Assembly: GCF_021502675.1 (NCBI RefSeq) | Contig: NZ_JAKFHA010000008.1 | Span: 1 to 35,633 of the forward strand | Source of the DNA: Yinghuangia soli | Lineage (GTDB): Bacteria > Actinomycetota > Actinomycetes > Streptomycetales > Streptomycetaceae | Reading direction: 5' to 3' | DNA: 35,633 nucleotides | In this document: positions 22,711-35,552 of the stretch, in pieces | How the letters are laid out: every line of letters starts with the position of its first letter | Numbering within the stretch: position 1 is the stretch's first letter | Program-made: the position numbers and the translations under genes | The notes under the pieces: model-generated | Database searches by the model: none | What the model was told of the DNA's origin: nothing | The model's input: the letters and a program-made list of their open reading frames with translations, nothing else

Positions 22711-22743
22711 TGGAAGATGGAATGAGCGAGCGAGGGGTCCCCT

Positions 22744-23733
22744 GTGACGCTGTCGGCCGAGACCGTGCTTCATGAACTCGAGATGGATGTGGTCGTGCGC
22801 TCGGTGCGCGTCGAGTCGGACGGTGTGCGTTCGCTCGAACTCGCGCCGGCCGCCGCGGGCGACCGGCTGCCGCCGTGGACGCCCGGCGCGCACATCGACG
22901 TGCTGCTGGGCAGCGGCGCCGATGCGCTGGTACGGCAGTACTCACTGTGCGGCGACGCGGGCGAAGCGGAGGACCGGGGCAGTTGGCGGATCGCGGTGCT
23001 CCGCACCGAGGACTCGCGCGGCGGGTCGCGCTACGTGCACGACACCCTCCGCGAGGGCGACATCGTCACCGTGCGCGGACCCCGCAACCACTTCGCGCTG
23101 GCCGGCAGCCCGCGCTACCTGTTCATCGCCGGCGGCATCGGCATAACGCCGATCCTCCCGATGCTCGCCCAGGCCGAGGCGGCCGGCGCCGATTGGCGGC
23201 TCGTCTACGGCGGCCGCAGCCGCGCCGCGATGGCCTTCACGGACCGGCTGGCGGCGTACGGTGGCAAGGTCGCCCTGGTTCCGCAGGACGAGCAGGGGCC
23301 GCTCGACCTCGACGGCCTGCTCGGCACCCCCGAGCCCGACACCCTGGTCTACTGCTGCGGCCCCGCCGGACTCCTCGACGCGGTCGAGGCCAAGTGCGCG
23401 TCCTGGCCCTCCGGCGTCCTGCACATGGAGCGCTTCACGCCGATCGCGGCGGACGACGCGCAGAACCTGGAGTTCACCGTCGTCCTGCAGCGCTCCGGGC
23501 TGACGCTGACCGTCCCCGCGGACAAGTCGGTCTACAGCGTCTGCCGGGAGAACGACGTCTCGGTCCTCGCCTCGTGCCTCGAAGGCATCTGCGGCACCTG
23601 CGAGACCGAGGTCCTGGACGGCGAGGTCGAGCACCGCGACGCGATCCTCGACGAACACGAACGGGCCGCGAACAACACCATGATGATCTGCGTCTCGCGC
23701 TGCCGCGGCGGCAAGCTCACGCTCGACCTGTGA
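22744..23733 (+). CDS. VanB-type oxidoreductase (flavin reductase with 2Fe-2S ferredoxin domain)
   Basis: GTG 22744 has GAGGGG just upstream; 329 aa. Domain order is a flavin-binding barrel (RQYSLCG, then SRYVHDTLREGD), an NAD(P)H domain (FIAGGIGITPILPML and VYCCGPAGLLDAV) and a C-terminal plant-type ferredoxin with ligands Cys278, Cys283, Cys286 and Cys316. All four cysteines are intact. This is the class Ia reductase architecture (VanB, phthalate dioxygenase reductase) that passes electrons from NAD(P)H to a Rieske oxygenase. The gene directly precedes a Rieske-like subunit in an operon with an aldehyde dehydrogenase. Because that subunit has lost ligands, the reductase may instead serve the P450 at 31832 (speculative). 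Confidence 0.92.
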   Translation: MTLSAETVLHELEMDVVVRSVRVESDGVRSLELAPAAAGDRLPPWTPGAHIDVLLGSGADALVRQYSLCGDAGEAEDRGSWRIAVLRTEDSRGGSRYVHDTLREGDIVTVRGPRNHFALAGSPRYLFIAGGIGITPILPMLAQAEAAGADWRLVYGGRSRAAMAFTDRLAAYGGKVALVPQDEQGPLDLDGLLGTPEPDTLVYCCGPAGLLDAVEAKCASWPSGVLHMERFTPIAADDAQNLEFTVVLQRSGLTLTVPADKSVYSVCRENDVSVLASCLEGICGTCETEVLDGEVEHRDAILDEHERAANNTMMICVSRCRGGKLTLDL

Positions 23734-23747
23734 CCCCGGAGGCCACC

Positions 23748-24800
23748 GTGAAGCCACACAAGACAGGCCGGGCGCACGCGAGCGGCACCGGCAGCGTGAC
23801 GCGGTTCCCCAGGGACGCCTGGTACGCCCTCGCCCGCGCCGATGAGGTCGGCCGATCGCCGGCCGGCCGCGTCGTGCACGGCACCGGCGTCGTCCTCTAC
23901 CGGACCTCGGCGGGGACCGTCGCCGCCCTTGCCGACCGGTGCGCGCACCGGCCGTACCCGCTCAGCCTCGGCCGGGTCGCAGGCGACCTGCTCATCTCCT
24001 CGTACTCCGGCTTCGCCTACGGCCCCGACGGGCGCGTCGTTTCGGTGCCGACCCAGAAGCGCGTCCCGGTCGGCGCGGCGGTCCGCGCCTATCCCGTACG
24101 GGAGTACGCAGGGTTGGTGTGGGTCTGGACCGGCAGCCCGGGGCTCGCGTCCCGGCGCCCGCTGCCCGCGCTGCCCTGGCTGACCGAGCCGGACTGGACG
24201 ACCTTCGGCGCCGACTGGGAGACCGCCGCGGCCGGCGGGCTGCTGCAGGACAACTTCGCCGACATCACGCACGTCCCGCACCTGGACCCGGCACTCGCGC
24301 CGCCTGTCCTGCACCAGGTGCCGCCGCGCCTCGACGTCGAGGTCACCGAGCAACAGGTGCGCTTCCGCCGGGACTTCCCACCCGCCCGGCTGCAGACCTG
24401 GCAGAGCGAGGCGACCGGACTGCCGCCCGAAGGGGAGTACGCGCAGCACGAAGAAGGCTGGTTCGCGGCCCCCGGGCTCTGGGCGGACCGCTGGGACGTC
24501 CTGGTCCCCGGCGAGCCGCTCACCCTGCACTTCACGCACGCTCTCACGCCCGTCGACGAACGCCGCACCCGCCACTACTGGGCGGTCAGCCGCAACTTCT
24601 CCCCGAAGCCCGAGACCACCGGCATCCTGCGGCCGATCCTCGACGGGTACTACCGCAAGGTGAAGGACGCCCTCGAAGTGATGCAGGCACTCGTCGACCG
24701 CGAAGGCCCCGCGCCCGAGGTCCGGGTGCGGGCGGACGCCGCCCTGCTGGAAGTGCGCCGGGTCATGCGCCGCCTGCTCACGGAGGACACCGCACGATGA
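23748..24800 (+). CDS. VanA-like Rieske oxygenase alpha subunit with altered metal ligands
   Basis: GTG 23748 is preceded by GGAGG (23739-23743 region) and gives 350 aa; a GTG at 23730 overlapping the VanB stop is the alternative. The overall VanA-type pattern is present: PRDAWYALARADEVG, ADRCAHRPYPLSLGRVAGD, VPTQKRVPVGAAVRAYPV and LVWVWTG. The Rieske first pair is intact (Cys65, His67), but the second Cys and His are Ser84 and Ser87 (ISSYSGFAY where CxYHGF is expected). In the catalytic domain, N169-x2-D172-x2-H175 is kept, while the second iron His is shifted or lost (HVPHLD; Asp180 at the usual His position, His178 nearby). The codons read cleanly in a frame with good neighbours, so this does not look like a frameshift. 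Family membership is secure; oxygenase activity is doubtful. Confidence 0.85.
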   Translation: MKPHKTGRAHASGTGSVTRFPRDAWYALARADEVGRSPAGRVVHGTGVVLYRTSAGTVAALADRCAHRPYPLSLGRVAGDLLISSYSGFAYGPDGRVVSVPTQKRVPVGAAVRAYPVREYAGLVWVWTGSPGLASRRPLPALPWLTEPDWTTFGADWETAAAGGLLQDNFADITHVPHLDPALAPPVLHQVPPRLDVEVTEQQVRFRRDFPPARLQTWQSEATGLPPEGEYAQHEEGWFAAPGLWADRWDVLVPGEPLTLHFTHALTPVDERRTRHYWAVSRNFSPKPETTGILRPILDGYYRKVKDALEVMQALVDREGPAPEVRVRADAALLEVRRVMRRLLTEDTAR

Positions 24801-26188
24801 ACGACACGACGAGCCCCTACCGCGTCACGAACCCCGCCACCGGCGAGCAGGGCTCGCCGCACCCCACCGCGAGCCCGGACCAGGTGGAAGCCGCCCTCTC
24901 CGCGGCCGCGGCCGCCTACCCCGCGTGGCGGGCCACCCCGCTTTCCGAACGCCGGGCGCTGCTGCACCGGGTCGCCGACCTGCACGACGAGGCAGCCGGC
25001 GAACTCGCCGCCGTCATGGCCCGGGAGATGGGCAAGCCGGTCCGCTCCGGGCGCGGCGAGATCGGCCTGTGCGCCGAGATCTACCGCTACTACGCGGACC
25101 ACGCCGAGGAGTTCCTCGCCGACGAAGTCCTGCCGCAGCGGGACGGCGCCACCGCACTCCTGCGCATGGCCCCCGTCGGGCCACTCCTCGGGGTCATGCC
25201 GTGGAACTACCCGTACTACCAGGTCGCCCGGTTCGCCGCGCCGAACCTGCTGCTCGGCAACACCATCCTGCTCAAGCACGCCCCGCAGTGCCCCGAGAGC
25301 GCCCTGCGGCTGGCCGAGATGTTCGCCGGCGCCGGACTGATACCCGGCGGCTACACCAACCTCTTTCTGGACAACGACCAGGCCGCCGCGGTGATCGCCG
25401 ATCCGCGCGTCCAGGGGGTTTCGCTGACCGGCTCGGAGCGCGCCGGCGCGGCGGTCGCCGAGGCCGCCGGCCGCCACCTGAAGAAGGTGGTGCTCGAACT
25501 GGGCGGCGCCGACGCGTTCATCGTCCTGGACACCGCCGACCTCGACGCCCTGATCGCCGAGGCGGTGGTGGGGCGCATGGGCAACTGCGGCCAGGCCTGC
25601 AACGCGGCCAAGCGGTTCATCGTGGCCGCGGAACTGCACGACGAGTTCGTGGCGCGCTTCGCGGCGGCCGTCGCGGACATCCGGGTGGGGGACCCGTTCG
25701 ACGAGTCCATCGCCATGGGGCCGCTGTCGTCGCACGCCGCCCGCGACCAGGTCGCCGCACAGGTCGACGACGCGCTCGCCAAGGGCGCGGTCGCGCACAC
25801 CGGCGGTACGGCGGTCCCCGGCGCCGGGGCGTACTACCGGCCGACCGTACTGACCGGCGTCGTGCCGGGCATGCGGGCGTGGGACGAGGAGATCTTCGGG
25901 CCGGTCGCCGTGGTGCACAAGGCCGCCGACGCGGCGGAGGCCGTGCGGCTCGCCAACGACTCGCCGTACGGGCTGTCCGCCTCGGTACACGCCGCGGACC
26001 CCGCCGACGCCCTCGCGCTGGCGGACCTCCTCGACGTCGGCATGGTCTACATCGGCGAAGCCCCCTCGACCGCGGCCGACCTGCCTTTCGGCGGCACCAA
26101 GCGCAGCGGCTTCGGCCGCGAGCTCGGCCGCCTGGGCATCCAGGAGTTCGCCAACCGCAAGCTGGTCAAAGTGCGCGCCCAGGGTTAG
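24797..26188 (+). CDS. NAD(P)-dependent aldehyde dehydrogenase (succinate-semialdehyde/aminoaldehyde type)
   Basis: ATG 24797 overlaps the Rieske gene stop (ATGA); 463 aa, the length of short GabD-like enzymes. Catalytic Glu234 (LELGGADAF) and Cys268 (GQACNAAKRF) are 34 residues apart as expected, and the oxyanion Asn is in MPWNYPYYQ. EEIFGPVAVV and PFGGTKRSGFGRELG complete the fold. It oxidises an aldehyde to a carboxylate in the cytoplasm. In context, the substrate is probably an amino- or gamma-glutamylamino-aldehyde formed from the amine, the PuuC-like step, or a semialdehyde from the aminotransferase. It is the last gene of the reductase-Rieske-dehydrogenase operon and is closed by the strong hairpin at 26215-26251. 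Confidence 0.92.
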   Translation: MNDTTSPYRVTNPATGEQGSPHPTASPDQVEAALSAAAAAYPAWRATPLSERRALLHRVADLHDEAAGELAAVMAREMGKPVRSGRGEIGLCAEIYRYYADHAEEFLADEVLPQRDGATALLRMAPVGPLLGVMPWNYPYYQVARFAAPNLLLGNTILLKHAPQCPESALRLAEMFAGAGLIPGGYTNLFLDNDQAAAVIADPRVQGVSLTGSERAGAAVAEAAGRHLKKVVLELGGADAFIVLDTADLDALIAEAVVGRMGNCGQACNAAKRFIVAAELHDEFVARFAAAVADIRVGDPFDESIAMGPLSSHAARDQVAAQVDDALAKGAVAHTGGTAVPGAGAYYRPTVLTGVVPGMRAWDEEIFGPVAVVHKAADAAEAVRLANDSPYGLSASVHAADPADALALADLLDVGMVYIGEAPSTAADLPFGGTKRSGFGRELGRLGIQEFANRKLVKVRAQG

Positions 26189-26214
26189 CAACTTCCTCGG
26201 TACGTAAGCCGAAT

Positions 26215-26251
26215 GCCTGAAGGGGCGGGTCTCGGACCCGCCCCTTCAGGC
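26215..26251. terminator. Strong bidirectional terminator
   Basis: GCCTGAAGGGGCGGGT and its exact complement ACCCGCCCCTTCAGGC form a 16-bp stem with a 5-base loop (CTCGG) between the convergent aldehyde dehydrogenase and permease genes. Confidence 0.85.
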
Positions 26252-26283
26252 GTCTTCACAGGCTTTGCGCAGGGTGCCGGGCG

Positions 26284-27804
26284 TCAGCTCACGAACTCCT
26301 TGAGCAGCGCGTTTTCGCTGCGCTTCTTCGCGGTGGCCAGCGCGTACACGACGGCGCCGCCGAACACGGCGAACGGGCACAGCGCCAGGATCCAGCCGGT
26401 CGCGGACATGTGCCAGGCGTCCATGCTGGTGCCGGCCGTCCCGCTGATGAGCCCGAACCGGGCCAGCAGCAGATACAGGATCCCGACCATCGCCGCGAGG
26501 CTCAGCGCCGGGGCTATGAGCACGTTCCACGGCCGCGTGTCGCCGCCGTTGCGCCGGAAGTAGACGATGACCGAGATGCTCACGAGCGCCTGGACGAAGG
26601 TGAGCGCCACGATCGCGGTGATCGCGAACCAGTAGAAGAGGTTCACCACCGGATCGAGGTCGAACAGCGCGAACGCGGCCACCACGAGACCGGCGATCGA
26701 CGTCTGCAGGAACGACGCATAGGCCGGTACGCCACGGGAGTTCGTGCGCCCGAACGCCTTCGGCAGCAACTCGGCGCGGCCCATCGCGAAGAAGTAGCGG
26801 GTCGCGGAGTTGTGGAAGGCCAGCACGCACGCGAACGCGCTGCTGATCAGCAGCCACTTCATCAGCTCCGCCAGCCAGCCGCCCACATAGACGTCCGCCA
26901 CGTGGAAGAGCACCTGGGCGGGGTCGGCAAGCGGTACGTCGCCGACCGTGGTCAGCCGCACGGTCTCGTCGGCCACCTGGGTGTGCCCGACACCGCTCAC
27001 CACGCCGAACGACACGACCGCGAAGACGGCCGTGATGATGCCGACCGACAGGTACGTGGACAGCGGCACGGTACGCCGGGGGTTCCGCGACTCCTCGCCG
27101 TAGATCGCGGTGGCCTCGAAGCCGATGAAGCCGGCGAATGCGAAGGCGAACGCGATGCCCGGCGCGCCGTCCATGATGGCCGACGGACTGAACGAGGCGC
27201 CCAGGTCGATGCCGTCCGGGCCGCCGCCGTCCAGGAAGACCGCGAGCGCGGTCAGCATCATCGACCCGACCTCCAGGACCAGGAGCAGGCCGAGCAGCTT
27301 CGCGCCGAACTCGACGTGCAGCAGGCCCAGCACCTGGACCAGGGCGACCGCGGCGAGCGACCACACCCACCAGGGGACGTCCAGGGACGGCAGCGTCCCG
27401 GCGACCGTCGCCCCGAGGTAGCCGTACACCGCGGCCTGCACGAGGCAGTACGCCATGACGGTCACGAACGCGGACGCGACGCCCCAGGTCACCCCGAGGC
27501 CGCGGCCTATGTAGGCGAAGAAGGCGCCGGTGTGCACCACGTGGTTGCTCATCGCGGCGTAGCCGACCGAGAAGAGCATGAAGACCAGGCCCGCGACCAG
27601 GAAGGTCCCGGGCGCGGCGGCGCCGTTCCCGATGACCAGGATGCTGGGCACCAGGCCGGTCATCCCGGCGATGGGCGCGGCCGCCGCGATGACGAAGAAG
27701 CAGATTCCGAAGACCCCGATGGCATTCCGGGTGAGCGACGTGCCGCCCGTTCCTCCCGGATCCCTCGGTTCTCTGTCGGTCGGCTCGGCGGTCTCGGTGC
27801 TCAC
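26284..27804 (-). CDS. APC-superfamily amino acid/amine permease
   Basis: The start is GTG 27804, which has GGGAGGG just upstream; a longer in-frame ATG (27948) would add 48 proline-rich residues without a ribosome binding site. The 506-aa protein has about 12 hydrophobic segments after a ~35-residue acidic leader. TM1 carries the APC pattern AAAAPIAGMTGLVPSILVIGNG, and GFIGFEATAIYGEESRNPRR is the diagnostic TM6-loop motif. It should import an amino acid or amine by proton symport. The position inside the cluster makes it the likely importer of the pathway substrate, the role PuuP plays in E. coli. Confidence 0.9.
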   Translation of the reverse strand: MSTETAEPTDREPRDPGGTGGTSLTRNAIGVFGICFFVIAAAAPIAGMTGLVPSILVIGNGAAAPGTFLVAGLVFMLFSVGYAAMSNHVVHTGAFFAYIGRGLGVTWGVASAFVTVMAYCLVQAAVYGYLGATVAGTLPSLDVPWWVWSLAAVALVQVLGLLHVEFGAKLLGLLLVLEVGSMMLTALAVFLDGGGPDGIDLGASFSPSAIMDGAPGIAFAFAFAGFIGFEATAIYGEESRNPRRTVPLSTYLSVGIITAVFAVVSFGVVSGVGHTQVADETVRLTTVGDVPLADPAQVLFHVADVYVGGWLAELMKWLLISSAFACVLAFHNSATRYFFAMGRAELLPKAFGRTNSRGVPAYASFLQTSIAGLVVAAFALFDLDPVVNLFYWFAITAIVALTFVQALVSISVIVYFRRNGGDTRPWNVLIAPALSLAAMVGILYLLLARFGLISGTAGTSMDAWHMSATGWILALCPFAVFGGAVVYALATAKKRSENALLKEFVS

Positions 27805-27916
27805 GGTTCCCTCCCGGGGGTCGGCGGGGAATGCGCCGGTCGGCGCGTCCCCGGCTTGGCGTACGGAGTCGTCAGGCGGTGGTTCGGGCGGGTGCGCCGG
27901 GCGGGGCGCAGCGGGC

Positions 27917-27946
27917 GCCGCGGCCGGATGGCGGTCCGGCCGCGGC
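27917..27946 (-). terminator. Hairpin downstream of the alcohol dehydrogenase
   Basis: GCCGCGGCCGGA and TCCGGCCGCGGC form a perfect 12-bp stem with a 6-base loop, starting 5 bp after the leftward dehydrogenase stop. It probably separates that gene from the permease 147 bp away, which would then need its own promoter. Confidence 0.65.
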
Positions 27947-27951
27947 ACGGT

Positions 27952-28920
27952 TCAGGAGGTGGTCAGCACGATGCGGCCCCGGGAAGCGCCGGAGCGCAGC
28001 AGTTCGTGGGCCCGGTTGGCCTCGCTCAGCGGGAGGTGTTCGACGACGTGCCGCAGCGGCTCGCGGCGGGCCATGCCCAGCAGGTCGTGCAGGTCGGCGA
28101 GGCTGCCCCAGATGCTGGTGGTGAGCGAGACCTCGCTGGGCAGGCGGCCCAGGCCGAAGGGCACGCTGCCGCCGAACATCCCGACCAGGACGACTACTCC
28201 GCCGCGCTGCACGTTGGCCACCGCGGCGCCGAGCGTCGCCTCGGCGCCCACGAAGTCGACCACGGCGTCGTACGGCGCGCCGCCGACCTCCTCGGGCGTG
28301 AGCGTCGTGTCGGCGCCGAGTTCGCGCGCCACCGAGAGCCGGGCGGGCAGCGTGTCGACCACCGTGATGTGCACGCCCGGGGTGCGGCGCAGGAACTGCA
28401 CCGCGTACTGGCCCAGGCCGCCCGCGCCGATGACCAGCACGCGCGACGAACGACCGGCCTCGCGCAGGGTCATGGCCCGCCGCACCGCGCGGAACGCGGT
28501 CAGCCCGCCGCACGCGAGCGGGGCGACTTCGAGCGGGTCGAGGCCCTCCAGCGGCACCAGGTACTCGCGGTGGGGGACCAGCATCTTGTCGGCGTAGCCG
28601 CCGTCGTCCACAATCCCGGCCTCGTGGCTGTCGGCGCAGATCATCTCCTGCCCGGCCGCGCACTGCAGGCATCCCGGGCGGCGGCAGCCCCACGGGGCGT
28701 ACACCATGACGGGACCCAAGCGGGCGTCCAGGCCGACCACTTCGTGGCCGAGCACGATCGGGGTGCGGCCGATGCTGCCGTCCGCGACATGCAGGTCGGA
28801 ATGGCAGACGCCGCACCCGAGGACGTCGATCACCGTCTGGTCCGGGCCGGCCGCCACGGGGTCCGGCACCTCGCGTGCGACAAGGGGTTTTCCGGGGGCC
28901 TCAAGAGTCATCGTCCGCAT
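27952..28920 (-). CDS. Zinc-dependent alcohol dehydrogenase (MDR family)
   Basis: The 322-aa reading from ATG 28920 has the catalytic zinc set Cys39 (GVCHSD), His59-Glu60 (LGHEV) and a Cys in PLACGGL. It also has a complete structural zinc lobe, Cys79, Cys84, Cys87 and Cys95 (CRRPGCLQC...C). The nucleotide-binding motif is VIGAGGLGQYAVQ. It interconverts an alcohol and aldehyde with NAD(P). It is slightly shorter than the usual ~340-350 aa because the loop after GHE is trimmed. It diverges from the gamma-glutamyl ligase at 29017 across a shared operator, so it is probably induced with it and may oxidise an amino-alcohol or hydroxylated intermediate made by the P450. Confidence 0.9.
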   Translation of the reverse strand: MRTMTLEAPGKPLVAREVPDPVAAGPDQTVIDVLGCGVCHSDLHVADGSIGRTPIVLGHEVVGLDARLGPVMVYAPWGCRRPGCLQCAAGQEMICADSHEAGIVDDGGYADKMLVPHREYLVPLEGLDPLEVAPLACGGLTAFRAVRRAMTLREAGRSSRVLVIGAGGLGQYAVQFLRRTPGVHITVVDTLPARLSVARELGADTTLTPEEVGGAPYDAVVDFVGAEATLGAAVANVQRGGVVVLVGMFGGSVPFGLGRLPSEVSLTTSIWGSLADLHDLLGMARREPLRHVVEHLPLSEANRAHELLRSGASRGRIVLTTS

Positions 28921-28984
28921 CGGCCAGCCTTTCCGAGGTGCCTTGGGTGCCTTGCCGCTCCCGCCTGATGGCCGGTAAGGTAGC

Positions 28985-29004
28985 TGATAGACGATAATTT
29001 ATCT
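28985..29004. promoter_or_regulatory. 20-bp operator-like site between the alcohol dehydrogenase and ligase genes
   Basis: TGATAGACGATAATTTATCT lies 12 bp before the ligase GTG and about 65 bp before the divergent dehydrogenase. It contains the 11-bp palindrome GATAA-T-TTATC. It matches the reverse strand of the site at 34069-34088 at 16 of 20 positions. The A+T content is exceptional locally, and it overlaps likely -10 elements in both directions. Confidence 0.65.
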
Positions 29005-29016
29005 ACGGGAGGGGCC

Positions 29017-30354
29017 GTGGCGAACGAGCCAGGCAGAAACCTCGACGAATGCGCACGGATCGCCGAGTCGGCAGGCGTGCACACCGTCATCTGCCTCTTC
29101 ACCGACACCTGGGGGGTCCCGCGCGGGAAGCACCTCCCGATCCGCCAGTTCCTGCGCGGCGGACGCTTCACCACGGCCGCGGTCGCGCTGTCGTGGAACC
29201 CGCGCTCCGACGTCCAGCCCACGCCGTGGGCCGAGATGGACAGCGAGTTCAAGGACATGGCGGTGGTCGCCGACCTGGACACCTTCCGGATCGCCGGCTG
29301 GACCGAGGGCACCGCGGTCGTCGTCTGCGACACGGTCGACCTGGAGACCGGCGAGCCGACCGCGATGGACGCACGCGCGATGCTCAAGCGCACGCTGCGC
29401 GAGTACGCCGAGCTCGGGATGACCGTGAACCAGGCCCCCGAGCTGGAGTTCCACCTCTTCGGTGCGGACTGGAAGCCGATATCGGACAAGTCGCTGTGCT
29501 ACTCGGTGGACCGCGCCGACGAACTGGACACGGTCCTCGGCGCGATCCGCGGGGCCCTGCTGCGCACCGGTATCGACTGCGAGGCGAGCAACGTCGAGTA
29601 CGGCCCGTCCCAGATCGAGATCAACCTGCGCTACGCCGCGGGGATCACCTCGATCGACGAGACGGTCCTGTTCCGGTTGATCACCCGCGCGGTCGCGCGC
29701 CGGCACGGCTACCACGCGACCTTCATGGTCAAGCCGATCAACGGCGGCGCCGGCTCCGGCATGCACATCCACCAGAGCCTTGTCGACACCCAGGGCCGCA
29801 ACGTCTTCGCGGTCCCGGACAGCCCCGGCCACGCGCTCCCGTCCAAGGCGATGCAGGGCTACGTCGCCGGACTGCTGCGCCGCCAGCTCGACCTGCAGGT
29901 GCTGGCGATGCCCACGGTGACCGCGTACCGCCGGGCCGAGGACTACTCCTTCTCGCCCACCCAGGTCTGCTGGGGCATGGACAACAGGCTGGTCGGCGTC
30001 CGCTGCCTGACCCCGGACGAGCCGGGCACCCGCGTCGAGGTGCGCTGGGGCGCCGCCGACGCCAATCCGTACCTGCTCGCGCACGGCTACCTGCAGGCCG
30101 GGCTCGAAGGCATGCGGGACAACGCGCCGCTGCAGCCGGTCTCGACCGGCGACCCGCACGCCGACACCGCGCTGCCGCGCCTTGCGCCCAGCCTGGACAA
30201 GGCCGTCGAGGCCTTCCACGGCAGCGAGTTCGCCCGCCGCGCCTACGGCGACATGTTCGTCGACACGTTCACGGTCATGCAGCGCAACGAGCTCGCCGCC
30301 TTCGGTGCGCACATCACCGACTGGGAGTTCGCGCGCTATGCCGACATCTTCTGA
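29017..30354 (+). CDS. Glutamine-synthetase-like gamma-glutamyl-amine ligase (PuuA/GlnA3-GlnA4 type)
   Basis: GTG 29017 follows GGGAGGGG (29008-29014); 445 aa. Glutamine synthetase motifs are present: metal-binding NQAPELEFHLFG, EYGPSQIEIN, the GSGMHIHQSL histidine segment, PTVTAYRRAEDYSFSP and RVEVRWGAADANPYL. The N-terminal pattern TDTWGVPRGKHLPI and absence of the adenylylation-loop sequence of assimilatory GlnA place it with ligases that join glutamate to amines (putrescine, ethanolamine, isopropylamine). The reaction would be ATP + glutamate + amine giving the gamma-glutamylamide. It leads an operon with two gamma-glutamyl/amidotransferase-type hydrolases and a P450. The amine is unknown. 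Confidence 0.88.
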   Translation: MANEPGRNLDECARIAESAGVHTVICLFTDTWGVPRGKHLPIRQFLRGGRFTTAAVALSWNPRSDVQPTPWAEMDSEFKDMAVVADLDTFRIAGWTEGTAVVVCDTVDLETGEPTAMDARAMLKRTLREYAELGMTVNQAPELEFHLFGADWKPISDKSLCYSVDRADELDTVLGAIRGALLRTGIDCEASNVEYGPSQIEINLRYAAGITSIDETVLFRLITRAVARRHGYHATFMVKPINGGAGSGMHIHQSLVDTQGRNVFAVPDSPGHALPSKAMQGYVAGLLRRQLDLQVLAMPTVTAYRRAEDYSFSPTQVCWGMDNRLVGVRCLTPDEPGTRVEVRWGAADANPYLLAHGYLQAGLEGMRDNAPLQPVSTGDPHADTALPRLAPSLDKAVEAFHGSEFARRAYGDMFVDTFTVMQRNELAAFGAHITDWEFARYADIF

Positions 30355-31081
30355 GCCCGCCGGCGACCCGCTGCGCGCCACCGGCCGGCCGCCGAGGGCC
30401 GTGCTCGTCACGCATGAGGCCTTCGGCGCCGACGACACCGGAGCGGTCCGCGGACTGCTCGCCGACCGCGGCTTCGAGGTCGTCCACCACACCGTGTTCC
30501 CGCGCGGCGAGGCCCGCGACCCCGACCTGGCCCTGCCCGACCCGGCCGGCGCCGACCTGGTGATGGTCTTCGGCTCGTTCGCGCACGCCTGGGAACCGCG
30601 GAACAAGGACTGGGTCGCCACCGAGGTCGCCTGGGTCCGGCGGGTGCTGGCCTGGGACATCCCCTATGTCGGCATCTGCTTCGGCGGCCAGCTGCTGGCC
30701 GACGCCTGGGGCGGGCGGATAGAACCCGGGGACGGCCACGAGATCGGCATGCTGACCTTCGCGACCGTCCCCGAATGCCCGGTCCCGGGCGGCCCGTGGT
30801 TCTCCTGGCACAGCGACCGCGTGGTCCTGCCGCCGGACGTCGCGGTGTGGTCGCGCAGCGACTTCGGGCCGCAGATCTTCACCCGCGGCCGGTCCATCGG
30901 GGTGCAGTTCCACCCCGAGGTCACCCGGGCCCTGGTCGAGTCCTGGATCCGCACCGACGAAGCCGGCGTCGACCGGCTGCACGGCGCGGACCGGCTGCGC
31001 GCCGAGGTCGACGAGAACGTGGACACCGCGCAGGAGAACCTGCGGCGCTTCCTCGACTGGGTGATCGGAGCCTGGGTATGA
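30338..31081 (+). CDS. Class I glutamine amidotransferase-like protein
   Basis: ATG 30338 lies 17 nt inside the ligase gene; 247 aa. The triad is visible as Cys114 (GICFGGQLLA), His192 and Glu194 (GVQFHPEVT). Other GMP-synthase-type amidotransferase features are VMVFGSFAHAWE and FSWHSD. No partner synthase domain is present, so it is a free-standing hydrolase or amidase. Its position between a gamma-glutamyl ligase and a PuuD-like hydrolase suggests it cleaves or channels a gamma-glutamyl intermediate, like amidotransferase-type hydrolases in alkylamine degradation (inference). The heavy overlaps imply coupled translation. Confidence 0.85.
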   Translation: MPTSSEPAGDPLRATGRPPRAVLVTHEAFGADDTGAVRGLLADRGFEVVHHTVFPRGEARDPDLALPDPAGADLVMVFGSFAHAWEPRNKDWVATEVAWVRRVLAWDIPYVGICFGGQLLADAWGGRIEPGDGHEIGMLTFATVPECPVPGGPWFSWHSDRVVLPPDVAVWSRSDFGPQIFTRGRSIGVQFHPEVTRALVESWIRTDEAGVDRLHGADRLRAEVDENVDTAQENLRRFLDWVIGAWV

Positions 31082-31800
31082 CCGGGCGCCCCCGCATCGC
31101 CGTCCCGGGCCGGTTCAGCGCATCCGCCTCGGCGCTGCGCTACCGGGCGGTCGTCAATGCCCATGCTCTCCTCGAAGCGGTCTGGGCCGCGGGCGGCGAC
31201 CCTGTCACCCTGCTGCCGACCCCGGATCCGACGCCCGAGGAGACCGCGGCCCGGCTCGCCGCGTACGACGGCGTGCTGCTGCCGGGCGGTGCCGACATCA
31301 ACCCGGCCCTGTACGGCGCCGCACCGGAGCCCGGGACCGACCCGCCCGACGACGTCCAGGACGCCTTCGACCTGGCCGTACTGGAGTACGCGATCGGGCA
31401 TGCGGTGCCGCTGCTCACCGTGTGCCGCGGCACGCAGCTCCTCAACGCCGCCCTGGGCGGCACCCTCGACCAGGCCTTCGCCGATCCGCACGTGCACGTC
31501 GTGCAGAAGGTCACGCCGGTCGACCCGGTCCTGTTCGGACCGGACTCCATCCCGGTCAGCTGCTACCACCGGCAGCGCATCGACGTGCTGGCCGACGCGC
31601 TGGAGCCGTTCGCGTACGCCGAGGACGGCACCATCGAGGCGGTCCGCTACCGGGCCGCGCCCGGCTGGGTCTTCGGCGTGCAGTGGCACCCCGAGGACAC
31701 CGCCGCCACCGATGCGCACCAGCAGCTCCTGCTCGAACACTTCGTGGCCGCGGCCCGGGACCGCGGCCGGGACGCACGGCACCTCCGGCAGACCTCGTAA
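31078..31800 (+). CDS. Gamma-glutamyl-GABA hydrolase-like peptidase C26 (PuuD type)
   Basis: ATG 31078 overlaps the previous stop (ATGA); 240 aa. The nucleophile is Cys116 (LLTVCRGTQLLNAALGG), with His204 and Glu206 (GVQWHPED). DGVLLPGGADINPALYG and the SCYHRQRID segment are typical of peptidase C26/PuuD, which frees glutamate from gamma-glutamyl-aminobutyrate after oxidation. Here it probably removes the glutamyl group once the amine part has been oxidised to an acid. It follows a second amidotransferase-like enzyme, so the operon encodes two potential deglutamylases. Confidence 0.9.
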   Translation: MTGRPRIAVPGRFSASASALRYRAVVNAHALLEAVWAAGGDPVTLLPTPDPTPEETAARLAAYDGVLLPGGADINPALYGAAPEPGTDPPDDVQDAFDLAVLEYAIGHAVPLLTVCRGTQLLNAALGGTLDQAFADPHVHVVQKVTPVDPVLFGPDSIPVSCYHRQRIDVLADALEPFAYAEDGTIEAVRYRAAPGWVFGVQWHPEDTAATDAHQQLLLEHFVAAARDRGRDARHLRQTS

Positions 31801-31831
31801 GCCCAGCAAGTCCGGCAAGAGAAGGAACGTC

Positions 31832-33103
31832 ATGGGACCCAATGACATCGACCTCACCGACCTCGACCTCTTCGGGAACGGAACCCCGCACGAGGCGTTC
31901 CGGACCCTGCGCGACCAGGCGCCGCTGTTCTGGAACGACGAGACCGGCGGCAACAAGGGCTTCTGGTCGGTCACCCGCTACGACGACGTCGCCGCGGTGG
32001 ACAAGGACGCCGCGACGTACTCGTCCGAGCAGCAGGTCACGCTGGAGGAACTCGACGAGGACCAGCTCCTGGTGCGCAAGTCGATGATCGACACGGACGG
32101 CGCCCGGCACTGGGCCCTGCGCAAGGTGCTGCTGCGCGAGTTCAGCCCGCGCGCGGTGGCGCTCTACGGCGACTTCCTGACCAAGCTGACCGGCGCCACT
32201 CTGGACCGCGCGCTGGCGCTGGGCGAGTTCGACTTCGTCGAGCAGATCAGCGCGGACATCCCGATCCGGCTGCTGGCGCGCATGCTGGACGTCCCGATCG
32301 AGGACACCGACAAGCTGATCGACTGGGGCAACCAGATGATCGCGAACTCGGACCCGGACTACACCGACGTGCTGGCCGGCAGCCCGGAGTCCGAGCAGTA
32401 CCGCGACCTGCCGTTCCGCTCGCCCGCCGCACTGGAGGTCTTCGAGTACGGCTTCCGGCTGGCCGCGCAGCGCCGCGGCGGCACCGGCACCGACCTCGTG
32501 TCCAAGCTGGTCAACACCACGCCGGAAGACGGCATCCCGCTCTCCGACCTGGACTACCAGAACTACTTCTCGCTGCTGATCATCGCCGGGAACGAGACCA
32601 CCCGGCACACCATCTCGCACACCGTCCGGGCGCTGGCCTCGCACCCGCAGGCCTGGGCCGACCTCAAGGCGGACCCGTCGCTGGTGGGCAACGCGGTCGA
32701 GGAGTTCCTGCGCTGGGCCACCCCGATCGTGCACTTCCGGCGCACCGCGACGCGCGACGTCGAACTGCACGGGCAGCGGATCCGCGAAGGCGACAAGGTG
32801 GTGATGTGGTTCGGCTCGGCCAACTTCGACGAGCGCAAGTTCGCCGACCCGCACGTGTTCGACGTGCACCGCAAGAACGTCGAGCACGTCTCCTTCGGCA
32901 AGGGCAGCCCGCACTTCTGCCTGGGCAACGCGCTGGCCCGCCTGGAGATCAAGATCGTCATCACCGCGCTGCTGGAGCGCCTGGAGCGCATCGAGCTCCT
33001 CGAGACGCCCAGCATGGTCCGCTCGAACCTGGTGCACGGCATCAAGAAGATGCCCGTGCGCGTACACCCCGACCCGGCGTTCCCGGCGACTGCCACCGCC
33101 TGA
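31832..33103 (+). CDS. Cytochrome P450 (CYP125/142-like motifs)
   Basis: ATG 31832 has GAAGGA at 31821-31826; 423 aa, soluble. The I-helix oxygen-activation motif is AGNETTR (Ala252-Thr257), the K-helix is EEFLRW, and the heme thiolate is Cys363 in FGKGSPHFCLGNALARLE. The heme loop has one residue more than the common FGxGxHxCxG, as in CYP125-type FGGTGAHYCIG; AGNETTR also fits that group. It sits 31 bp after the PuuD-like gene and ends the ligase operon. No ferredoxin gene is adjacent, so the electron donor must come from elsewhere, possibly the VanB-type reductase. It may hydroxylate or N-dealkylate the amine or its glutamyl conjugate (inference). Confidence 0.92.
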   Translation: MGPNDIDLTDLDLFGNGTPHEAFRTLRDQAPLFWNDETGGNKGFWSVTRYDDVAAVDKDAATYSSEQQVTLEELDEDQLLVRKSMIDTDGARHWALRKVLLREFSPRAVALYGDFLTKLTGATLDRALALGEFDFVEQISADIPIRLLARMLDVPIEDTDKLIDWGNQMIANSDPDYTDVLAGSPESEQYRDLPFRSPAALEVFEYGFRLAAQRRGGTGTDLVSKLVNTTPEDGIPLSDLDYQNYFSLLIIAGNETTRHTISHTVRALASHPQAWADLKADPSLVGNAVEEFLRWATPIVHFRRTATRDVELHGQRIREGDKVVMWFGSANFDERKFADPHVFDVHRKNVEHVSFGKGSPHFCLGNALARLEIKIVITALLERLERIELLETPSMVRSNLVHGIKKMPVRVHPDPAFPATATA

Positions 33104-33116
33104 GGCACCGGTCGGC

Positions 33117-33195
33117 GCCGGCCGGGCTGCAACCCGGCCGGCACAGGGAAGGGCCCGCTCCGCGCAACCTGGCTCGGTACGCGCGGGGCGGGCCC
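33117..33195. terminator. Two tandem hairpins between convergent P450 and GntR genes
   Basis: The first hairpin pairs GCCGGCCGGG with CCCGGCCGGC (33117-33142, 10-bp stem, 6-base loop). The second pairs GGGCCCGCTCCGCGC with GCGCGGGGCGGGCCC (33151-33195, 15-bp stem with one U-G pair, 15-base loop). Confidence 0.75.
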
Positions 33196-33203
33196 GTCCG
33201 CTC

Positions 33204-33258
33204 GTCTTCGGTTTGTCTTCGGTTTGTCTTCGGCTCGGCTTCGGCTCGGCTTCAGCGC
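33204..33258. repeat. Five tandem copies of an 11-bp unit
   Basis: GTCTTCGGTTT occurs twice exactly, followed by GTCTTCGGCTC, GGCTTCGGCTC and a degraded GGCTTCAGCGC. The array begins after the terminator pair and runs over the GntR stop codon. The 11-bp period is not a codon multiple and is close to one helical turn. Confidence 0.8.
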
Positions 33259-33971
33259 GCGGGGGTCTCCGTGCCGCCCTCGCCGGCCGCCCCGCCGGTG
33301 GCGAAGAAGCCCGCTTCGGTGAGGGCGTCCACGGCCCGGCGGCCGTTGATGCTGAGGTGGTGCTCCATGGCCGCCCGGGCGGTGTCGGCATCCCGGGCGC
33401 GCAGCGCGGCGATGATCGCATCGTGCTCGTTCGCGGCGTTGTTCTGCCAGCCCGGGATGATCACGCCGAAGCGCACGTCCATGCCGTGCGACAGCGGGCG
33501 CAGCACCGAGCGCAGCCGGCGGGACGCGCCGATCCGGTTGATCCGGCTGTGGATCTCGTTGTTGAGCTCTTCCTGCTCCTGCGGGTCCTCGGCGGTGCGC
33601 ATGCGCTGGTTGAGGGCGTGGAGTTCGTCGATCTCGTCGTCGCTCATCGCCTTCGAGGCGCGGGCCGCGGCGATGCCGGAGATCTTGCCGTAGATCTCGT
33701 AGTGGTCCAGGACGTCGACCGGGTCCAGCTCCTCCACGTAGTAGCCGCGGCGCGGGACGGTGCGGACCAGGCCCTCCGCGGACAGCGCGATGAGCGCCTC
33801 GCGGACCGGGAGTTGGCTGACGTCCAGGTCGGCGGCCAGGCCCGAGACGTCCAGCCGACTGCCGCGGCGGAGGTCGCCGACCATGATGCTGTTGCGGATC
33901 ACATCAGCGACGTCCTCGCGCAGAACCCGGCGGGCCGGGACTCGTGACGTGGGGGAGATATGTCCGCTCAT
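33252..33971 (-). CDS. GntR-family regulator with FCD domain
   Basis: I chose ATG 33971 (239 aa); a start at 34049 would add 26 arginine-rich residues encoded within the promoter region. The N-terminal GntR winged helix (~10-80) includes GSRLDVSGLAADLDVSQLPV and REALIALSAEGLVRTVPRRGY. The C-terminal FCD domain has metal-site-like residues in NNEIHSRINRIG and the closing NEHDAIIAAL...MEHHL, as in the FadR/VanR subgroup. It is divergent from the aminotransferase and shares with it an operator-like site at 34069-34088. Related elements before the ligase/dehydrogenase and VanB-like genes make it the probable regulator of the whole cluster. The inducer is presumably the amine or a pathway acid. 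Confidence 0.9.
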   Translation of the reverse strand: MSGHISPTSRVPARRVLREDVADVIRNSIMVGDLRRGSRLDVSGLAADLDVSQLPVREALIALSAEGLVRTVPRRGYYVEELDPVDVLDHYEIYGKISGIAAARASKAMSDDEIDELHALNQRMRTAEDPQEQEELNNEIHSRINRIGASRRLRSVLRPLSHGMDVRFGVIIPGWQNNAANEHDAIIAALRARDADTARAAMEHHLSINGRRAVDALTEAGFFATGGAAGEGGTETPAR

Positions 33972-34068
33972 GACTCCGCAATCTCTTCGGCCACCACGGG
34001 CGGCCGCGACGCTGCGTCCCCCGGACCGGATCGGCTCCGGTCGCGCCATGTTACTCGCGCGATCACTC

Positions 34069-34088
34069 TGATAGTTTATCGTATATCA
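34069..34088. promoter_or_regulatory. 20-bp operator-like site between GntR and aminotransferase genes
   Basis: TGATAGTTTATCGTATATCA has TGATA/TATCA arms. Its reverse strand matches the 28985-29004 site at 16 of 20 positions, including the shared block ACGATAA. It lies 98 bp upstream of the GntR start and 168 bp upstream of the aminotransferase start, in an A+T-rich island. Confidence 0.65.
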
Positions 34089-34094
34089 ATTCAG

Positions 34095-34245
34095 TACGGC
34101 GGCTTTGTCGCTTGCCTTCGCCCGCCGCGGCCTGCCTTCCGGCGTGTGCTCCGCCGTGTCGTGCGTCTTGCCTTCGTCCGGCCTTCCCCCGCCGCCTGGC
34201 TTCGCCGCCTCCTTTCGCCGGTTCCTTCCGTCGTCTTCTTCTGCC
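34095..34245 (+). other. Pyrimidine-rich leader before the aminotransferase
   Basis: This stretch is dominated by recurring CCTTC and CCGCC words with few A residues. It is open in one frame but lacks coding character and a ribosome binding site of its own, so I read it as a long, C/U-rich 5' untranslated region. Confidence 0.4.
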
Positions 34246-34255
34246 GAGGAGTCTC

Positions 34256-35530
34256 ATGTCCGCCACACCGACCCTGGTGACCCCCGCCGCCACGCTGTCC
34301 GGCGTCTGGAGCCGGATCACGCAGCTGAACGTCGTCTCGGGCTCCGGGGCATGGGTGGAGACCGTCGAAGGGGAGCGCTACCTGGACTTCACGGCCGGGA
34401 TAGCCGTCTGCTCGACGGGCCACGCGCATCCGCGGGTCGTGGAGGCCATCCGCACGCAGGCGGGCCGGATCGTGCACGCGCAGGTGAACTGCTACCAGCA
34501 CGACCTGCTGGCGCCGCTGGCCGACCGGCTGGCCGAGCTGACGCCGCCGGCCATCGAGCAGTTCTTCTTCAGTAATTCCGGCGCCGAGGCGGTCGAGGCC
34601 GCGGTCAAGCTGGCCAAGCAGGCCACCGGGCGCACCGGGGTGGTGGTCTTCCAAGGCTCGTTCCACGGCCGCACCCACCTGACCGCGGCGATGACCACGT
34701 CCAAGGCCGTGTACCGCGTGCACGCCCAGCCGCTGCCCGCGGGCGTCTTCGTGGCGCCGTTCCCGTCCCTGGTCGGCCGTGCGGAGGCCGATGCGGATGC
34801 CGAGGTCGCGCGCTGCCTGGACGGCCTCCGGGAACTCCTGGAGACGACCTGCCACCCGTCCGACATCGCGGCGTTCGTGATCGAGCCGGTCCAGGGCGAG
34901 GGCGGCTACCGCCCGGTGCCCGCGGCATTCCTGCGCGGGCTGCGGGAGATCTGCGACGCACACGGGATCCTGCTCGTCGCGGACGAGGTGCAGACCGGAT
35001 TCGGCCGCACCGGCACGATGTTCGCCATCGAGCATTACGACGTCGAGCCCGACGTGATGGTGCTGGCCAAGGGCATGGCGTCCGGGATGCCGCTCAGCGC
35101 GGTCGGCGCGCGGGCCTCGGTCATGAGCGCCTGGGTGCCCGGCTCGCACGGCGGCACCTACGGCGGCAATGCGGTCGCCTGCGCCGCGGCCCTGGCCACC
35201 ATCGACGTGCTCACCGAACCGGGCGCGCCGGAGCACGTCCGCGACCTGGGCGACGCCCTGCGGGACGCGTTGCTCGGGCTCCGGGCCGCACACCCCGAGG
35301 CCGTCGTGGACGTGCGCGGCCTCGGCCTCATGCTCGCCGTCGAGTTCGCCGACCCGGCGGTCACCGCCCGCATCGTGGCGGCCTGCCTCGCCCGCCGCCT
35401 CATCCTCACGACGGCCGGCGCCCGCGGTGCCGCGATCCGCTGGATGCCGCCGCTCGTCGTGACGCGCGCCGAACTCGACCAGGCGATCGGCATCTTCGCC
35501 GCGGCCGTCGCCGAGGCGCTCGCGGACTGA
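34256..35530 (+). CDS. Class III PLP aminotransferase (4-aminobutyrate aminotransferase/PuuE type)
   Basis: ATG 34256 has GAGGAG at 34246-34251; 424 aa. PLP-site features are SNSGAEAVEAAVKLAK, FQGSFHGRTHLT, Asp243 (VADEVQTGFGRTG) and the Schiff-base Lys272 (LAKGMASGMPLSA). EPVQGEGGY and GGTYGGNAVAC complete the 4-aminobutyrate-type fold. It moves an omega-amino group to 2-oxoglutarate (or pyruvate), giving a semialdehyde that the cluster's aldehyde dehydrogenase could oxidise. By analogy with PuuE, it would act on the free amino acid released by the PuuD-like hydrolase. It is transcribed alone after a long leader and divergent from the GntR regulator. Confidence 0.92.
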   Translation: MSATPTLVTPAATLSGVWSRITQLNVVSGSGAWVETVEGERYLDFTAGIAVCSTGHAHPRVVEAIRTQAGRIVHAQVNCYQHDLLAPLADRLAELTPPAIEQFFFSNSGAEAVEAAVKLAKQATGRTGVVVFQGSFHGRTHLTAAMTTSKAVYRVHAQPLPAGVFVAPFPSLVGRAEADADAEVARCLDGLRELLETTCHPSDIAAFVIEPVQGEGGYRPVPAAFLRGLREICDAHGILLVADEVQTGFGRTGTMFAIEHYDVEPDVMVLAKGMASGMPLSAVGARASVMSAWVPGSHGGTYGGNAVACAAALATIDVLTEPGAPEHVRDLGDALRDALLGLRAAHPEAVVDVRGLGLMLAVEFADPAVTARIVAACLARRLILTTAGARGAAIRWMPPLVVTRAELDQAIGIFAAAVAEALAD

Positions 35531-35552
35531 CGGCTGCCGGACGCCGGCGCAC

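What the first reader, a model, noticed from the sequence alone, without database searches (positions are those of the whole stretch)
22744..35530. Puu-like gamma-glutamylation pathway in which the flavin amine oxidase is missing and a P450 and VanAB-like pair are present
Known: the putrescine Puu pathway uses permease, gamma-glutamyl ligase, flavin oxidase (PuuB), aldehyde dehydrogenase, hydrolase and transaminase. Seen: every one of these except PuuB, plus a P450, a VanB reductase, a Rieske-like protein and a zinc alcohol dehydrogenase. I recall mycobacterial morpholine/piperidine loci that also put a P450 near a glutamine-synthetase-like gene. Inference: an oxygenase performs C-N oxidation or N-dealkylation of an unusual (secondary, cyclic or hydroxylated) amine before or after glutamylation.
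Basis: partly seen in the sequence, partly recalled or inferred. Interest (0 to 1): 0.78.

Follow-up and report, generated by a model that had tools for sequence, protein, structure and literature searches.

The report
P450-driven glutamylated-amine catabolic gene cluster
An actinobacterium carries a co-regulated gene set that appears to tag a small branched amine with glutamate, oxidise it with a P450 instead of the usual flavin oxidase, and feed it into central metabolism; the 'Rieske oxygenase' in the set has lost its iron-binding residues and looks like a recycled partner of the P450.

Summary
In detail: permease, gamma-glutamyl ligase, two amidotransferases, P450, Zn-alcohol dehydrogenase, GntR regulator, class-III aminotransferase and a VanB–VanA–aldehyde dehydrogenase unit; no PuuB. 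The window cuts the cluster: 7 kb more follow (acyl-CoA dehydrogenase, itaconyl-CoA-hydratase-like and citramalyl-CoA-lyase-like genes, CoA-transferase III, PuuC-like dehydrogenase). One 12-bp palindrome occurs exactly four times in the 9.7-Mb genome, all at this cluster's promoters, VanB's included: probably one regulon. Closest known system: the Ipu (isopropylamine) pathway, where a P450 hydroxylates the glutamylated amine. P450 kinship (CYP125/124/268) and the methylsuccinate-type tail suggest omega-hydroxylation of a glutamylated C5 branched amine (isoamylamine or 2-methylbutylamine); the substrate is inferred. VanB is probably the P450's reductase: a P450–VanB fusion exists in a relative, and the congener keeps VanB–ALDH under the operator without VanA. 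By sequence the VanA-like protein is no working oxygenase: 13 of 14 homologues near a P450 or in a ligase cluster lack an iron-site histidine, against 0 of 24 with neither in the stretch held. That conserved P450-associated 'dead Rieske oxygenase' is the most novel point. Nothing was tested biochemically.

The parts
22701..22712 (+). operator-like site GATAAATTATTG upstream of VanB
   Evidence: 4 exact sites in G000, all at this cluster; 0 for the reversed control
22744..23733 (+). VanB/PDR-type reductase (NAD-binding + C-terminal 2Fe-2S domain), proposed electron donor of the P450
   Evidence: Pfam; Fer2, RxYS and GGxGxT motifs intact; fused to a P450 in a Tsukamurella plasmid
23748..24800 (+). 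VanA-like Rieske oxygenase homologue with lost Rieske and iron-site residues (start GTG 23748 judged from the GGAGG before it; frame open from 23730)
   Evidence: Pfam (PF00355, PF19112); residue loss
24797..26188 (+). aldehyde dehydrogenase, last gene of the VanB unit
   Evidence: Pfam/NCBIfam; 84% in G001 directly behind VanB
26284..27948 (-). amino-acid/amine permease
   Evidence: Pfam; 34% to the Ipu permease, 22% to PuuP
27952..28920 (-). Zn-dependent alcohol dehydrogenase
   Evidence: Pfam; homologue divergent to the ligase in 13 of 13 distinct outside-genus loci
28992..29003 (-). operator-like site between ADH and ligase
29017..30354 (+). gamma-glutamyl-amine ligase (GS-like; lacks the GS ammonium-site Asp and flap Glu)
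   Evidence: Pfam; residue alignment; tree
30338..31081 (+). class-I amidotransferase GAT1 (Cys-His-Glu present), proposed gamma-glutamyl-amide hydrolase
31078..31800 (+). C26 amidotransferase GAT2, PuuD-like (30%)
31832..33103 (+). cytochrome P450 of the CYP125/124/268 neighbourhood, proposed omega-hydroxylase of the glutamylated amine
33252..34049 (-). GntR/FCD regulator, likely reader of the operator (inference)
   Evidence: Pfam; site in its own promoter
34069..34080 (-). operator-like site between GntR and aminotransferase
34112..35530 (+). class-III aminotransferase, 41% to E. coli PuuE (true start probably 100-140 nt further in, from the G001 alignments)
35551..35633 (.). poly-G/C assembly junk at a scaffold gap; cluster continues beyond (G000:C78 35839-43006: acyl-CoA DH, Ccl-like lyase, Ich-like hydratase, LysR, CoA-transferase III, PuuC-like ALDH)
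   Evidence: 35, 37, 47

Best explanation
A catabolic regulon for a small primary alkylamine, most likely a C5 methyl-branched one (isoamylamine or 2-methylbutylamine). The permease takes up the amine; the GS-like ligase makes the gamma-glutamyl amide; the P450, reduced by the VanB-type reductase, hydroxylates the terminal methyl; Zn-ADH and an ALDH oxidise it to the acid; one of the two amidotransferases removes glutamate to give a methyl-GABA; the class-III aminotransferase and another ALDH give methylsuccinate; CoA-transferase III, acyl-CoA dehydrogenase, hydratase and lyase yield acetyl-CoA and pyruvate. The GntR regulator controls four promoters. The VanA-like protein can no longer be a Rieske oxygenase; it is a dispensable accessory of the P450-VanB pair. 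Shown by computation: gene content, synteny, shared operator-like site, ligand loss, a P450-VanB fusion in a relative. Inferred: every reaction, the substrate, the electron route, which protein reads the site.
For: Operator: GATAAANTATYR has exactly 4 exact hits in G000 (9.7 Mb), all at this cluster's promoters; reversed control 0. G001 has 3 of its 4 hits at the same promoters and the fourth in front of VanB-ALDH without VanA. Outside the genus (13 distinct loci): ADH divergent from ligase 13 of 13, GAT1 13 of 13, CoA-transferase III 13 of 13, a P450 of 40% or more 11 of 13. P450 profile: best solved relatives CYP125, CYP268, CYP124 'methyl-branched lipid omega-hydroxylase'. Tail: G001 hydratase's best solved relatives are itaconyl-CoA hydratase (E 4e-61) and an unnamed MaoC_dehydrat_N protein (9e-61), then 7e-4; lyase nearest RipC_Ccl in NCBIfam (below cut-off); a set with these four functions was shown to use methylsuccinate in P. 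aeruginosa (PMC9875883, passages). Ligase lacks the GS ammonium-site Asp and flap Glu. Ipu precedent. VanB: fused to a P450 in Tsukamurella; P450 beside VanB-VanA in 10 of the 11 other genomes with the closest VanA homologues.
Against: No biochemical data. NCBIfam matches of lyase and hydratase are below curated cut-offs, and below-cut-off matches to both families occur in 10 of 10 genomes searched, G002 without the ligase included. The acyl-CoA dehydrogenase is closest to FadE3 and to no family over its cut-off, so it does not itself point to methylsuccinyl-CoA. The aminotransferase is in 0 of 13 outside-genus loci; in the Nanopelagicales-type loci the acyl-CoA dehydrogenase is only about 33% alike and the lyase and hydratase lie elsewhere, so the end product may differ there; their P450 next to ADH is of another lineage (40-42%). 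VanB/VanA are absent from the stretches held of all 13 (though on one of these contigs, G554:C19, they lie about 14 kb from the ligase), so another reductase must serve in most. One VanBA locus (L181) sits in a ligase cluster with no P450 found in 18 kb. Ligase specificity cannot be read from sequence. Identities to CYP124/125 were not computed.
Confidence: 0.58

Rival explanations
1. Same pathway logic (glutamylate, P450-oxidise, hydrolyse) but another substrate: a different alkylamine or amino alcohol whose skeleton also enters the CoA-transferase/acyl-CoA dehydrogenase route.
For: Ligase is only 32% to IpuC and 29% to PuuA, so specificity is open; Nanopelagicales-type clusters share the ligase but have a different acyl-CoA dehydrogenase.
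Against: The combination CoA-transferase III + acyl-CoA DH + itaconyl-CoA-hydratase-like + Ccl-like resembles the published methylsuccinate route, which would narrow the skeleton to methyl-branched C5.
Confidence: 0.25
2. N-dealkylation: the oxygenase hydroxylates the carbon next to nitrogen, releasing an aldehyde and glutamine (or opening a cyclic amine).
For: P450s with neighbouring GS-like genes are discussed for piperidine/morpholine/azepane degradation (PMC9477822, passages); ALDHs are present.
Against: Would leave the two amide hydrolases, the ADH and the aminotransferase without a step; the P450's best solved relatives are CYP125/268/124. PipA/MorA themselves were not compared. Gaps between the window's cluster genes are 150 bp or less, leaving no room for the ferredoxin described there (coordinates).
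Confidence: 0.1
3. VanB-VanA-ALDH is an unrelated neighbouring operon (e.g. aromatic demethylation) that merely lies beside the amine cluster.
For: Not contiguous with the P450 operon; absent beside the permease in G001 (L011) and in the stretches held of the 13 outside-genus loci.
Against: Same operator-like site; VanB-ALDH kept under that site in G001; the six closest VanA homologue loci are all ligase clusters, five with a P450.
Confidence: 0.07

Closest known systems
Ipu pathway (isopropylamine; IpuC, P450, amidotransferase; Pseudomonas KIE171, Paenarthrobacter aurescens TC1)
   Same: GS-like ligase, P450 reported to act on the gamma-glutamyl amide, class-I amidotransferases, permease, ADH, ALDH, class-III aminotransferase in one cluster (the KIE171 paper itself is not held)
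   Different: Ligase 32%, P450 28% identical; Ipu has ferredoxin + ferredoxin reductase, here VanB; product there L-alaninol, here a methylsuccinate-type tail; no VanA-like gene annotated there
Puu putrescine pathway (E. coli)
   Same: PuuE-like aminotransferase 41%, PuuC-like second ALDH 42% (outside the window), PuuD-like GAT2 30%, PuuA-like ligase 29%
   Different: No PuuB; P450 + ADH in its place; CoA-dependent tail
P. aeruginosa itaconate/methylsuccinate cluster PA0878-PA0883
   Same: CoA-transferase, methylsuccinyl-CoA dehydrogenase, Ich, Ccl functions together (PMC9875883, passages)
   Different: Here apparently fed by an amine; the MmgE/PrpD epimerase and transporter of that cluster were not seen; no direct comparison with the PA sequences was made
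GcoAB guaiacol O-demethylase (two-component P450)
   Same: P450 served by one multi-domain reductase resembling those of Rieske oxygenases (PMC6021390, passages)
   Different: GcoB has its 2Fe-2S domain at the N-terminus (BenC-like); VanB has it at the C-terminus; no VanA-like protein
VanAB vanillate O-demethylase
   Same: VanB- and VanA-family pair
   Different: VanA-like protein here lacks Rieske and iron-site residues; the 24 homologues with no P450 or ligase found nearby keep all seven checked

Membership tests
Ipu-type gamma-glutamyl alkylamine pathway | GS-like amine ligase without ammonium-site residues | tested here: met
   GS Asp (FDGSS/A) and flap Glu (EAP) absent; which residues matter is from PMC11335346 passages and recall
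Ipu-type gamma-glutamyl alkylamine pathway | P450 in the same regulon acting on the glutamylated amine | tested here: inconclusive
   same operon as the ligase, which carries the operator-like site; reaction not testable
Ipu-type gamma-glutamyl alkylamine pathway | orthology of ligase and P450 to IpuC and its P450 | tested here: not met
   32% and 28%; ligase forms its own 10-row clade
Puu pathway | PuuB flavin oxidase | tested here: not met
   no hit at E<1 in window, extension or relatives' loci searched
Rieske non-haem iron oxygenase (VanA) | CxH...CxxH Rieske ligands | tested here: not met
   C,H,S,S
Rieske non-haem iron oxygenase (VanA) | His-His-Asp facial triad | tested here: not met
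   H, D, V at the aligned positions; identity of the distal Asp column is my inference from invariance in 25 of 25 intact proteins
VanB/PDR reductase | flavin/NAD motifs and four-Cys 2Fe-2S | tested here: met
   (motif patterns recalled)
methylsuccinate/itaconate module | CoA-transferase III, acyl-CoA DH, hydratase, lyase together | tested here: met
   (outside the window, G000:C78 35839-41463); family-level matches, below NCBIfam cut-offs
methylsuccinate/itaconate module | activity on methylsuccinyl-CoA | not testable with these tools
   -

The most novel reading that the evidence does not exclude
A hybrid monooxygenase class in which a VanAB pair has been captured by a P450: VanB became the P450's reductase and VanA decayed in steps (first the mononuclear iron site, then the Rieske cluster) into a conserved non-oxygenase accessory subunit, here used to omega-hydroxylate gamma-glutamylated branched amines on a previously undescribed route to methylsuccinate.
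Probability: 0.42. Interest if true: 0.82.

Novelty: new variant of a known kind. Interest (0 to 1): 0.66.

Why it matters
It gives a concrete, testable gene-to-reaction map for catabolism of leucine/isoleucine-type amines in actinobacteria, including Aurantimicrobium and Nanopelagicales-type MAGs. It also exposes a recurrent P450-VanB-'dead VanA' set whose VanA member is named in public records as a Rieske or ring-hydroxylating dioxygenase protein, and it offers a natural series (intact, iron site lost, cluster lost) for asking how an oxygenase subunit is turned into a partner protein.

Tried and rejected
The first working idea, that VanB-VanA-ALDH was an unrelated neighbour, was held after (no VanA/VanB in the 14 outside-genus ligase loci printed, 13 distinct) and given up. 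N-dealkylation and cyclic-amine readings were considered and ranked low (see rivals). RipC/RipB family hits as proof of the endpoint: weakened, which found below-cut-off matches in 10 of 10 genomes each. A scan for GATA-N3-5-TATC in 21 loci, two of them the host's and congener's second cluster, gave one hit (L033), so the operator was seen only at the genus's own cluster and at G002's single site. The inverted-repeat scan otherwise gave mostly GC-rich repeats. In the first VanA table most 'no P450' loci had 1.5-kb flanks, too short to see past VanB; I fetched wider stretches for the remaining 20 and repeated the test with 16 P450 queries: the result stood. Literature searches (listings only, passages where cited) listed no paper that I recognised as describing isoamylamine catabolism by glutamylation or a P450-associated degenerate Rieske oxygenase; several listings were cut to the best few of many, and the library lacks most subscription journals. 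AlphaFold was not used: the tool does not name loci from the genome search or the fetch from genomes among those it takes, and a model from the single window sequence would have been weak. Alignment A1 had one row on the wrong strand and was replaced by A2.
Full report
Observation. The order is VanB-type reductase > VanA-type Rieske homologue > ALDH >; < permease < Zn-ADH; GS-like ligase > GAT1 > GAT2 (C26) > P450 >; < GntR/FCD; class-III aminotransferase >. Ligase and GAT1 overlap by 17 bases, GAT1 and GAT2 by 4, and the P450 starts 31 bp behind GAT2, so they read as one operon. PuuB is absent: E. coli PuuB finds only itself among the 16 sequences searched, which include the window and its right-hand extension. 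Relative to E. coli Puu proteins the window has 41% (aminotransferase/PuuE), 30% (GAT2/PuuD), 29% (ligase/PuuA), 32% (window ALDH/PuuC) and 22% (permease/PuuP) identity.

The window cuts the cluster. The last about 80 bases are poly-G/C, followed on the contig by Ns and a repeat of the aminotransferase end: a scaffold gap. Beyond it on the same contig (G000:C78) follow an acyl-CoA dehydrogenase, a Ccl-like lyase, an itaconyl-CoA-hydratase-like gene, a LysR regulator, a class-III CoA-transferase and an ALDH 42% identical to PuuC, in the same order in a congener, G001. Lyase and hydratase were characterised with the G001 copies (75-76% identical to the host's).

Distribution. The ligase is rare: 3 of 61 relatives at E<=1e-60 (own, G001 89%, G019 38%), 3 of 293 genomes of the order at E<=1e-60 (own and two at 37-38%), 9 of 394 of the class at E<=1e-65 (own, seven at 48-50% in one family of small genomes, one at 37%); only the first few candidates per genome were scored. 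In the genus, 2 of 3 genomes have an orthologue; the third has only a 32% match. A tree of 28 ligases puts window, G001, Aurantimicrobium, the Micrococcales MAG and six of these/f36 rows (below 'Nanopelagicales-type', my label) in one clade of 10 (100/100), apart from IpuC, PuuA, an aniline-type ligase and the host's other five GS genes (the program flags several long branches).

Synteny. I counted 13 distinct loci outside the genus (L037, L043, L042, L038, L041, L044, L039, L040, L027, L029-L032). ADH divergent from the ligase: 13 of 13. GAT1: 13 of 13. Class-III CoA-transferase: 13 of 13. P450 at 40% or more (rounded): 11 of 13 (L039 is a 5-kb contig; L031 has only a 27% P450). Permease: 10 of 13 (absent from three shorter loci). 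Acyl-CoA dehydrogenase: 12 of 13, but 69% alike only in L037 and L043 and about 33% in the rest. Aminotransferase: 0 of 13. VanB/VanA: 0 of 13. In the Nanopelagicales-type loci the P450 next to ADH (40-42%) is of another lineage; a P450 closer to the window's (51-57%) lies nearby beside a second ligase, GS2, in L042, L188, L190 and L191. In Aurantimicrobium the CoA-transferase, lyase and a RipB-type hydratase without detectable similarity to the host's sit together about 7-10 kb from the ligase.

Regulon. Comparison of promoters in host and congener showed a shared palindrome. GATAAANTATYR, up to one mismatch, has 3 matches in the window against 0.04 expected from shuffles. In the whole host genome it has exactly 4 exact matches, all here: upstream of VanB (22701), between ADH and ligase (28992), between GntR and aminotransferase (34069) and upstream of the acyl-CoA dehydrogenase (C78:35790); the reversed pattern has none. 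The pattern was made from these sites, so the informative facts are that nothing else in 9.7 Mb fits it, and G001: three of its four matches are at the same promoters and the fourth (C109:2433) is in front of VanB-ALDH (79% and 84% identical) with VanA missing; the sequence after the VanB stop codon there leads straight into ALDH through a ribosome-binding region like the one that precedes VanA in the window. G002, without the ligase orthologue, has one site, about 70 bp before a match to the CoA-transferase family (34%). The GntR gene, with the site in its own promoter, is the likely reader (inference).

The VanA-like protein. Against 17 homologues found in relatives, the window protein has Ser in place of the second Rieske Cys and of its His, and Asp in place of the second iron His. 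A class-wide search found 11 other genomes with E<=1e-56 (12 of 394 with own), and I fetched a neighbourhood for each (G570 has a second match that I did not fetch). In the six closest (44-56%; L180-L185) the neighbours are a GS2-type ligase in 6 of 6, a P450 53-60% identical to G001's (itself 93% to the window's) in 5 of 6, an ADC-family protein in 5 of 6; in four the order is P450-VanB-VanA in one direction. One of them, G554:C19, is also the contig of a ligase orthologue (L038), about 14 kb away. In the other five (36-40%; L192-L196) a P450 (34-36%) lies by VanB-VanA in 5 of 5, without a ligase. So a P450 is near in 10 of 11. On plasmids, Tsukamurella encodes one 828-residue protein in which residues 78-479 match the window P450 (34%) and 519-828 match VanB (52%), followed by a VanA-like gene; Mycobacterium paragordonae has P450-ALDH-VanB-VanA-like; a Streptomyces plasmid has VanA-VanB with protocatechuate genes and no P450 in 6 kb.

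Scoring the 38 different VanA homologues held (identical and short matches dropped): 12 have a P450 within 3.5 kb and two more (window, L165) are in a ligase cluster; 13 of these 14 lack at least one iron-site His (exception L171). The other 24 keep all seven residues checked. For all 24, wider stretches (for 20, for three, for one; mostly 5-9 kb a side, with L221 and L225 cut to 2.5 and 1.0 kb on one side by contig ends) show no P450 and no GS-like gene at the thresholds used. Fisher p is 2.6e-9, a guide only, since the proteins are related and the affected ones are mostly also the nearest to the query. The losses form tiers: iron-site His to Asn/Asp/Tyr with Rieske motif kept (L195, L217, L173, L196, L219; L172 also has one Rieske Cys lost); CxH...CxxC with Gln/Ala at the iron site (L167-L170); no complete cluster motif (window C,H,S,S; L165 D,H,S,S; L166 C,H,S,T). 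An Asp that is invariant in 25 of 25 intact proteins, probably the distal iron ligand, is Val in the window and L165-L170. VanB keeps its cofactor motifs in the eight copies checked. My reading: VanB serves the P450; VanA is a spent oxygenase kept as accessory and lost in G001. The first tier might still carry an electron-transferring cluster (inference).

P450. A profile of seven cluster P450s finds, among solved structures, an entry named CYP125MRCA, then CYP268A2, CYP124 ('methyl-branched lipid omega-hydroxylase') and CYP125; the single-sequence search has CYP125 entries first and CYP124/CYP268 soon after. The acid-alcohol pair, ExxR and haem Cys are present. It is 28% identical to the Ipu P450.

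Downstream tail. The hydratase's best solved relatives are itaconyl-CoA hydratase 8khg (E 4e-61) and an unnamed MaoC_dehydrat_N protein 8huc (9e-61); the next is at 7e-4. The lyase is closest to entries named acyl-CoA lyase beta chain and to NCBIfam RipC_Ccl, below cut-off; the CoA-transferase to a formyl-CoA-transferase entry, SUGCT and NCBIfam succinate-glutarate CoA-transferase, below cut-off; the acyl-CoA dehydrogenase to FadE3, with (2S)-methylsuccinyl-CoA dehydrogenase 8ciw far down the list. Four homologous genes stand together without a ligase on Streptomyces and Mycolicibacterium plasmids (CoA-transferase/hydratase/lyase/dehydrogenase 69/57/60/76% and 62/49/58/73%). In P. aeruginosa a set with these functions was shown to convert methylsuccinate through mesaconyl-C4-CoA and citramalyl-CoA (PMC9875883, passages). 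Below-cut-off matches to the lyase and hydratase families occur in all 10 genomes searched, so the endpoint is an inference, not a proof.

Mechanism and substrate. Keeping nitrogen until after oxidation gives every gene a step: ligase, P450+VanB, ADH, ALDH, amide hydrolase, aminotransferase, ALDH, CoA-transferase, dehydrogenase, hydratase, lyase. A methylsuccinate endpoint by omega-oxidation corresponds to isoamylamine or 2-methylbutylamine (chemistry worked out by me, no call). The precedent for glutamylate-then-hydroxylate is the Ipu pathway (PMC6776027, passages; gene neighbourhood on pTC2). The precedent for a one-protein reductase of Rieske-oxygenase type serving a P450 is GcoAB (PMC6021390, passages).

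Limits. No expression, binding or enzyme data exist here. Organism names of G genomes are withheld. Where the aminotransferase is missing from the cluster, class-III homologues exist elsewhere in the three named-collection genomes searched (those of L037, L043, L042) and in G484 (30-46%). The literature library lacks most subscription journals.

Noticed in passing
window 35551-35633: Poly-G/C junk, then (beyond the window) an N run and a repeated aminotransferase 3' end: a scaffolding artefact at the window's end.
   Followed up: partly
L186 (G000:C1:241001-260000) 8330-15317; L187 (G001:C80): A second ligase-P450-ADC-family-permease-GAT cluster in the same genome and its congener, with no VanB/VanA found; the ADC-family protein's role is unknown.
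   Followed up: partly
window 20309-22702: NACHT-type STAND ATPase directly upstream of VanB; its stop codon overlaps the operator-like site.
   Followed up: no
L162 and L163 (plasmids): Stand-alone CoA-transferase/hydratase/lyase/acyl-CoA dehydrogenase module; on L162 a P450, an NDMA-dependent ADH and an ALDH lie a few kb away.
   Followed up: partly
L219 (M. paragordonae plasmid) 2166-10756: P450-ALDH-VanB-degenerate VanA beside 3-hydroxyisobutyrate dehydrogenase, acyl-CoA dehydrogenase and methylmalonate-semialdehyde dehydrogenase: perhaps the same oxygenase set on an isobutyl substrate.
   Followed up: no
window 16367-19553: TPP-dependent enzyme and FMN-dependent dehydrogenase side by side, with HbpS-like and IclR genes upstream; a mandelate-like route is possible (guess).
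   Followed up: no
window 7807-10128: Protein with N,N-dimethylformamidase-beta-like C-terminal domain and tachylectin-like stretches.
   Followed up: no
L042 3705-5848: Distant P450 without the usual acid-alcohol motif next to a luciferase-like monooxygenase inside a Nanopelagicales ligase cluster.
   Followed up: no
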